The position numbers were made by a program, and so were the translations under genes. Below the pieces are notes generated by a model. It was not told the DNA's origin. It searched no databases and saw nothing but the letters and a program-made list of their open reading frames with translations. This document shows positions 61,588-62,050 of a stretch of DNA of 64,000 nt, in pieces. Source of the DNA: Terriglobia bacterium (GTDB taxonomy: Bacteria; Acidobacteriota; Terriglobia; Terriglobales; Acidobacteriaceae); contig JAIQFA010000013.1 of the NCBI GenBank assembly GCA_020073525.1, positions 1 through 64,000 on the forward strand, in the 5' to 3' direction. Position 1 is the stretch's first letter. Every line of letters begins with the position of its first letter.

Positions 61588-61737
61588 ATGAACTACAGCA
61601 AGCCCGATGTAAGCACTCTCGGTCAGGCCAAGAGCGTGATCGAGCAGACTCCCGTCACTACGAAGCTGAGCACCAGTTCCGACGGCGGTCCGATTGGCTT
61701 CAACAAGCCCAATCCCGCGTACGACCTGGACGAGTAA
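61588..61737 (+). CDS. Lasso-like RiPP precursor peptide 1 (49 aa)
   Basis: MNYSKPDVSTLGQAKSVIEQTPVTTKLSTSSDGGPIGFNKPNPAYDLDE*; AAAGGAG RBS 10-16 nt upstream; adjacent to cyclase; paralogous to next ORF; YxxPxVxxxG lasso-leader signature. Confidence 0.9.
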   Translation: MNYSKPDVSTLGQAKSVIEQTPVTTKLSTSSDGGPIGFNKPNPAYDLDE

Positions 61738-61779
61738 CCAAAGAACGGGTCACTAATTTGTCAGCAATTAGCGCCCACA

Positions 61780-61810
61780 CCTTCCCGACCGTGCACAACG
61801 GCCGGGAAGG
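61780..61810. terminator. Inter-precursor hairpin (11 bp stem with one mismatch, 9 nt loop)
   Basis: CCTTCCCGACC-GTGCACAAC-GGCCGGGAAGG; no T-tract, so attenuator/processing element or weak terminator. Confidence 0.5.
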
Positions 61811-61903
61811 ACATATTACACCTTCGCGTGCGGATCAAGCGAGCGACGACCGCCCGCAGTATTTCGGCGTACGCAATGCATATTTCAGAAAAGGAGCTAC
61901 GCC

Positions 61904-62050
61904 ATGAACTACGTGAAACCAGAAGTGGCGGTACTCGGCACGGCAGTTCGCGTGATCGAGCAGATCCCCATCCAAAAGGGGCCTTACACGGTTATCGAGG
62001 TAGCTTCCCCGAAGTATAGGGTCAATCCCGCGTACGACCTGGACGAGTAA
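61904..62050 (+). CDS. Lasso-like RiPP precursor peptide 2 (48 aa)
   Basis: MNYVKPEVAVLGTAVRVIEQIPIQKGPYTVIEVASPKYRVNPAYDLDE*; AAAAGGAG RBS; 13/20 leader residues and last 8 residues identical to precursor 1. Confidence 0.9.
   Translation: MNYVKPEVAVLGTAVRVIEQIPIQKGPYTVIEVASPKYRVNPAYDLDE

What the first reader, a model, noticed from the sequence alone, without database searches (positions are those of the whole stretch)
61588..62050. Two unannotated lasso-like precursors with conserved leader, hypervariable core and an invariant C-terminal NPAYDLDE
Seen directly: ORFs of 49 and 48 aa, absent from the supplied track, each behind a strong AAAGGAG. Leaders MNYSKPDVSTLGQAKSVIEQ / MNYVKPEVAVLGTAVRVIEQ match at 13/20 positions, and both end NPAYDLDE. 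Aligned from Met without gaps, both carry an acidic residue at position 32 (D32/E32). Position 26 (K26/G26) would then give a 7-residue ring, and 24 or 25 would give 9 or 8. Known lasso leaders (YxxPxLxxxGxxxxxT) place the -2 Thr six residues after the Gly, but here that position is Ile18, so core geometry departs from the canonical spacing. A fixed C-terminus is unexpected if the core runs to the end of the peptide, and suggests a follower segment.
Basis: partly seen in the sequence, partly recalled or inferred. Interest (0 to 1): 0.93.

Follow-up and report, generated by a model that had tools for sequence, protein, structure and literature searches.

The report
Constant-tail lasso peptide precursors, Acidobacteria
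Two tiny overlooked genes in a soil acidobacterium encode precursors of knotted 'lasso' peptides; they belong to a large unnamed family in which the start and the last few residues hardly change while the middle is different nearly every time, which suggests a natural system for making many lassos with one set of enzymes.

Summary
ORFs 61588-61737 and 61904-62050 are lasso precursors in a complete cluster: ABC, PqqD/B1, regulator, prolyl oligopeptidase (POP), B2, cyclase, A1, A2, AtxE2-like isopeptidase and, past the window end, a TonB receptor and sigma-type regulators. About 240 relatives share the leader, a hypervariable core and a C-terminal AY[DE]xDE tail; the same genome holds a second such cluster. 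Nearly every core has Lys followed 6 or 7 residues later by Asp/Glu (230/239; shuffles about 31), so D32/E32 are the likely ring acids. Lys and acid move together relative to the leader, so the canonical frame (ring acid at core 7-9), which other acidobacterial lassos obey, fails here; the ring probably starts at Lys or one residue before it. Pro precedes nearly all AYDLDE tails, and POP is translationally coupled to B2, so POP removal of AYDLDE as a follower is my leading mechanism. It is unproven: the tail persists in clusters without POP, and Pro is not clearly enriched in other POP clusters. A retained tag read by exporter or TonB receptor is nearly as good. POP genes in such clusters and Ile/Val(-2) leaders were already reported; I found no report of the constant tail or the floating Lys-acid motif.

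The parts
52573..54414 (-). ABC exporter (MsbA-like, TIGR02203 below cutoff)
   Evidence: same position in most related clusters
54805..55167 (+). PqqD-family RRE (lasso B1)
   Evidence: PF05402 E 2.8e-18; lasso PqqD models below cutoff
55190..55963 (-). HTH regulator, typical of the AYDLDE clade
   Evidence: weak HTH_3 match; synteny
57147..59213 (+). S9A prolyl oligopeptidase (POP), no obvious signal peptide; candidate tail-cutting protease
   Evidence: PF02897+PF00326; closest solved: prolyl endopeptidase 2bkl, also Peptide cyclase 1, prolyl oligopeptidase 5n4f, OphP; GGSNAG nucleophile motif, GDGD and WGH motifs
59210..59581 (+). B2 leader peptidase (transglutaminase fold), GTG start overlapping the POP stop
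   Evidence: NF033537 above cutoff, PF13471; start and RBS
59595..61517 (+). Lasso macrolactam synthetase C (AsnB-like; Ser, not Cys, at position 2)
   Evidence: PF00733; NF033535 best model, below its cutoff; N-terminus
61588..61737 (+). Precursor A1, 49 aa: leader, core TKLSTSSDGGPIGFNKPNP (start uncertain), tail AYDLDE
61663..61683 (+). A1 K26 to D32: Lys-acid spacing 6, predicted ring segment
61711..61734 (+). A1 constant tail NPAYDLDE
61904..62050 (+). Precursor A2, 48 aa: leader, core QKGPYTVIEVASPKYRVNP (start uncertain), tail AYDLDE
61976..61999 (+). A2 K25 to E32: Lys-acid spacing 7, predicted ring segment
62024..62047 (+). A2 constant tail NPAYDLDE
62121..64000 (-). AtxE2-family lasso isopeptidase, continues to 64478 of the contig; TonB receptor-like gene 64591-67815 and anti-sigma/sigma-like genes to 69763 follow outside the window
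   Evidence: NF033523 E 1e-35 below cutoff; AtxE2 5txc E 2.4e-25; L185

Best explanation
A1 and A2 are lasso-peptide precursors of a three-part kind: a leader bound by PqqD (B1), a hypervariable core, and a constant AYDLDE tail. B2 removes the leader at or just before the conserved Lys. The cyclase joins the new N-terminus to D32 (A1) or E32 (A2), most likely giving an 8-residue ring in A1 and a 9-residue ring in A2 (7 and 8 if Lys itself is residue 1). The coupled POP then, or beforehand, cuts after the Pro of NP|AYDLDE, so the tail acts as a follower. The lasso is exported by the ABC protein, recaptured by the TonB receptor and opened by the isopeptidase. Shown by sequence: gene set, motif conservation, spacing statistics. 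Inferred: every catalytic step, ring start, tail removal. My odds for the steps: lasso precursors 0.93; D32/E32 as ring acids 0.85; ring starting at Lys or the residue before it 0.7; tail removed by POP 0.45. The confidence below is for the account as a whole, allowing the ring start to be off by a residue or two.
For: Complete lasso gene set, same order in dozens of clusters. Lys to acid spacing of 6 or 7 in 230 of 239, shuffle mean 31; Lys and acid positions correlate at 0.81; Lys-anchored spacing has lower entropy than leader-anchored (1.18 against 1.79 bits). Identity between paralogues falls from K-2 to K-1 (0.47 to 0.33, intervals overlap) and stays low until just before the tail. Thr is enriched 2.8-fold at K-3. 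Residue before the tail: Pro 212, Ala 13, Gly 12, Ser 2, Val 1 of 240. POP sits in the operon of all AYDLDE-clade clusters with enough upstream sequence, and its stop overlaps the B2 start. Negri 2025 (PMC12670498) saw no product from four split-B clusters, three of them with POP, expressed without the peptidase genes: weakly in line with POP being needed, with many other possible causes.
Against: No product is known. Presence of POP changes at least 7 (parsimony 11) times on the cyclase tree while the Y-x-x-[DE]-[DE] tail mostly stays, so POP cannot be the only reason for the tail. Outside the AYDLDE clade, Pro before the tail is 14/45 with POP and 4/21 without; independent pairs on the tree are too few to decide. 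Thr follows the leader rather than Lys, which argues for a fixed cut. I know of no tested lasso with Lys as residue 1.
Confidence: 0.42

Rival explanations
1. The tail is kept in the mature lasso and is a shared address tag, read by the ABC exporter, the TonB receptor or its sigma signalling, so that up to four different lassos per cluster use one export, uptake and isopeptidase route. POP does something else, such as breaking down leaders or linearised peptide.
For: Tail near-universal in the Lys clade with or without POP; a typical cluster has one TonB receptor and one isopeptidase for one to four precursors; sigma/anti-sigma-like pair next to TonB, as reported for isopeptidase clusters (PMC9266682).
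Against: Does not explain near-fixed Pro before AYDLDE in the clade of the window, nor POP translationally coupled to B2. I did not test whether tail changes track the receptor.
Confidence: 0.33
2. B2 cuts at a fixed place, with residue 21 (often Thr) at -2 and the core from residue 23. Rings then range from 7 to 11 with 9 commonest; A1 and A2 would both be 10-rings.
For: Thr enriched 3.5-fold at residue 21, also in the class with Lys one residue further on; shorter leader-to-Lys distance goes with longer Lys-acid distance (r -0.27).
Against: Ring size would be more variable than Lys-anchored spacing, and 10- and 11-rings lie outside the 7-9 range given in PMC10368454.
Confidence: 0.12
3. B2 cuts at the validated Ile(-2) spacing (core from residue 20) and the ring is closed by the side-chain amine of the conserved Lys onto D32/E32, not by the N-terminus: an internal Lys-acid lactam with a free N-terminal arm.
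For: Ile(-2) cutting is proven in BsfA (PMC10368454) and residue 18 is Ile; Lys is near-invariant; Lys-acid spacing is fixed while distance from residue 20 varies.
Against: I know of no lasso cyclase that uses a side-chain amine; the residues between 20 and Lys are somewhat more conserved between paralogues than the core, as expected of leader.
Confidence: 0.08
4. Chance or untranslated ORFs, or precursors not processed by this cluster.
For: No transcript or peptide evidence.
Against: Hundreds of homologues, those with long enough contigs beside lasso enzymes.
Confidence: 0.02

Closest known systems
Soil-metagenome 'group II' lasso clusters 364, 468, 8976, 9882 (Negri 2025, PMC12670498) and BGC 482.1 (PMC9064862)
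   Same: Split B1/B2; POP genes between core genes in three group II cases; APH-type kinase and two 141-bp precursor genes in 482.1, which is acidobacterial
   Different: No product obtained; no constant tail, Lys-acid motif or follower idea in the text I read; figures and supplements were not available, so the precursor sequences were not compared
BsfA and Acidobacteriaceae Ile/Val(-2) lasso precursors (PMC10368454)
   Same: YxxPxL-type leader, Ile where Thr is usual
   Different: There the Ile(-2) frame gives Gly1 and Asp8; here the same frame puts the acid at about +12 (mode)
AtxE2/astexin isopeptidase clusters (PMC9266682, PDB 5txc)
   Same: Isopeptidase, TonB receptor, sigma/anti-sigma-like genes
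   Different: Adds ABC exporter, POP, split B and tandem constant-tail precursors; that review says isopeptidase clusters lack an ABC gene except one
POP-processed cyclic peptides: amatoxin-type POP, Peptide cyclase 1, OphP (PDB 5n4f, 5uw3, 7zb0)
   Same: S9A POP in a RiPP pathway with a conserved segment C-terminal to a variable core (their biology from general knowledge)
   Different: Eukaryotic enzymes that also join peptide ends; here a lasso cyclase is present and POP would only cut

Membership tests
Lasso peptide cluster | B1 (RRE), B2 (transglutaminase-like protease) and AsnB-like cyclase beside the precursor | tested here: met
   B2 above the NCBIfam cutoff; cyclase best model is the lasso one, below its cutoff
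Lasso peptide cluster | Leader YxxPxL...G with Thr (or Ile/Val) at -2 | tested here: inconclusive
   Y3, P6, V8, G12, I18 fit the frame, but that frame gives a ring far outside 7-9; Thr sits at residue 21 in 30% of relatives
Lasso peptide cluster | Asp/Glu at core position 7-9 | tested here: inconclusive
   Not met in the canonical Ile(-2) frame (mode 12); met if the core starts at Lys or one residue before it
Lasso peptide cluster | Threaded product, -18 Da | not testable with these tools
   no experiment possible
Isopeptidase-type lasso cluster | AtxE2-like isopeptidase with TonB receptor | tested here: met
   NCBIfam isopeptidase model matched below its cutoff
Follower-bearing RiPP | C-terminal segment conserved independently of the core | tested here: met
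Follower-bearing RiPP | Segment removed in the product | not testable with these tools
   no experiment possible
Follower-bearing RiPP | A dedicated protease gene co-occurs with the segment | tested here: inconclusive
   POP and tail co-occur throughout the AYDLDE clade, but the tail remains in many POP-less clusters; POP elsewhere in those genomes was not searched for

The most novel reading that the evidence does not exclude
The lasso-type cyclase closes a ring between the side chain of the near-invariant Lys and the Asp/Glu 6-8 residues later, leaving a free N-terminal arm and a constant tail: a new ring topology made by lasso enzymes.
Probability: 0.08. Interest if true: 0.88.

Novelty: new variant of a known kind. 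Interest (0 to 1): 0.62.

Why it matters
It defines a large, mostly unannotated family of lasso precursors in abundant soil bacteria whose architecture (constant leader, constant tail, nearly free middle) looks like a natural display library. In 10 of 46 multi-precursor loci one cluster carries precursors with two Lys-acid spacings, which would need one cyclase to make two ring sizes, something engineering has found hard (PMC13352647). If the tail is a follower cut by POP, leaving POP out may be one reason why such clusters gave no product, a directly testable point. It also warns that the standard rule (acid at core 7-9 after Thr/Ile(-2)) misplaces the core here.

Tried and rejected
POP as a general tail protease, tested by co-occurrence: not supported outside the AYDLDE clade. 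Canonical Ile(-2) core start: rejected as a simple N-terminal ring because the acid falls mostly at +9 to +14, while eleven control precursors from other acidobacterial clusters without POP fit the canonical frame with an acid at 8 or 9. Lys-anchored Thr(-2): Thr tracks the leader, so not decisive. Family libraries for the precursors: no hit. The genome-contig scan with the precursor profile gave only 3 loci; the first alignment was too loose to scan with. Literature searches for a lasso follower found none. Structure prediction was not run: only single chains are possible and the question is about complexes.

Full report
OBSERVATION. The two ORFs are as described. A1 is MNYSKPDVSTLGQAKSVIEQTPVTTKLSTSSDGGPIGFNKPNPAYDLDE, A2 is MNYVKPEVAVLGTAVRVIEQIPIQKGPYTVIEVASPKYRVNPAYDLDE. 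The 27 nt from the Asn codon of NPAYDLDE to the stop are identical, 13 of the next 16 nt match, and leader DNA is 39/60 identical.

CLUSTER. Genes around them match B1 (PF05402), B2 (NF033537, above cutoff), an AsnB-like cyclase whose best NCBIfam model is the lasso cyclase (below its cutoff), an MsbA-like ABC exporter, and an AtxE2-like isopeptidase. Between the regulator and B2 lies an S9A prolyl oligopeptidase, closest in the PDB to a bacterial prolyl endopeptidase (2bkl) and also matching Peptide cyclase 1 and OphP. Its stop overlaps the B2 start, GTG at 59210 behind GGGAGG. Beyond the window the contig continues with the rest of the isopeptidase, a TonB receptor-like gene (its homologue in L007 is an outer-membrane barrel by Pfam), and two genes that look like anti-sigma and sigma factors (not searched against families).

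RELATIVES. A second cluster in the same genome (contig C54, L007) has ABC, PqqD, an APH-type kinase, POP, B2, cyclase, two precursors ending GAYEADE, isopeptidase and TonB. A profile of the four precursors found 155 proteins, and a DNA scan found 80 metagenome loci. In those long enough, the usual order is ABC - PqqD - HTH - POP - B2 - cyclase - one to four precursors - isopeptidase - TonB. Searching B2 in 396 genomes of the phylum and 399 of the family gave further clusters, fetched and read by script.

CORE. In 239 precursors with an AY[DE]-type tail, a Lys is followed by Asp/Glu at +6 (76), +7 (151) or +8 (11); 230 have +6 or +7 against a shuffle mean of 31, maximum 46. The sequences are related, so this is not a probability, but they come from diverse clusters; in the wider clade 63 of 67 precursors with any such pair have +6 or +7. 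Distance from the leader to Lys varies while Lys and acid move together (r 0.81). With Tyr at -17 as in BsfA (PMC10368454), the acid lies at +12 (mode), whereas eleven control precursors from other acidobacterial clusters have one at 8 or 9. If Lys is residue 1, rings are 7, 8 or 9; if residue 2, they are 8, 9 or 10. Paralogue identity falls at K-1, which mildly favours Lys as residue 2; overlapping intervals leave this open.

TAIL. The last six residues are nearly invariant. The residue before is Pro in 212 of 240; 12 of the others are Gly, the AYEADE-type sequences of other clusters. On a tree of 107 cyclases the AYDLDE clusters of the window's kind group together and all have POP. But POP changes state at least 7 times elsewhere and the tail mostly stays: 65 of 66 clusters with POP and 18 of 27 without have it, the lacking ones being mostly outer clades. 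Pro before the tail in other clusters: 14/45 with POP, 4/21 without. So POP cutting at P|A fits the clade of the window but is not the general reason for the tail. POP absence was judged only near the cyclase; a POP elsewhere in a genome could serve.

MECHANISM. I commit to a leader cut near Lys, ring closure on D32/E32, and POP removal of AYDLDE as the leading account (0.42), with a retained address tag close behind (0.33). The gene set, motifs and spacing are shown; every enzymatic step is inferred.

KNOWN WORK. Ile/Val(-2) in Acidobacteriaceae is reported (PMC10368454). POP genes inside split-B lasso clusters are reported; the peptidase genes were left out of the constructs, which gave no product (PMC12670498). 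An acidobacterial cluster with APH kinase and two precursors also gave none (PMC9064862). I found no report of a lasso follower, in an open-access library that lacks most subscription papers.

Noticed in passing
L007 (contig C54 of the same genome), 1874-16322: A second, diverged lasso cluster with APH-type kinase and two precursors ending GAYEADE.
   Followed up: yes
L028 10273-10440, L043 10378-10629, L063, L076, L082, L084, L089, L105: A further precursor type, usually last in the row, with a conserved rather than variable core..GT-x-IKGHxGIIEAIHWRILP-AYDLDE (14 distinct). A constant lasso beside hypervariable ones.
   Followed up: partly
window; L061, L070, L083, L101, L107, L109, L113, L116, L168: Ten of 46 multi-precursor loci mix Lys-acid spacings, implying one cyclase for two ring sizes.
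   Followed up: partly
L114 3999-8321, L115 10206-14190: Clusters with two full-length cyclases, no POP, tails AYQDWEE / AYEDWE.
   Followed up: no
L083 3692-3844, L101 9823-9930: Cyclase fragments between tandem precursors: likely scars of duplications that copied the cyclase end with a precursor.
   Followed up: no
L013, L015, L017, L022 (tails GLGLDD-like); L014, L165 (SKLEEE): Acidobacterial lasso precursors outside the Lys clade also have conserved acidic C-termini of other sequence, without POP.
   Followed up: partly
window 51613-52545 (-): A 310-aa ORF beside the ABC gene with no Pfam match.
   Followed up: no
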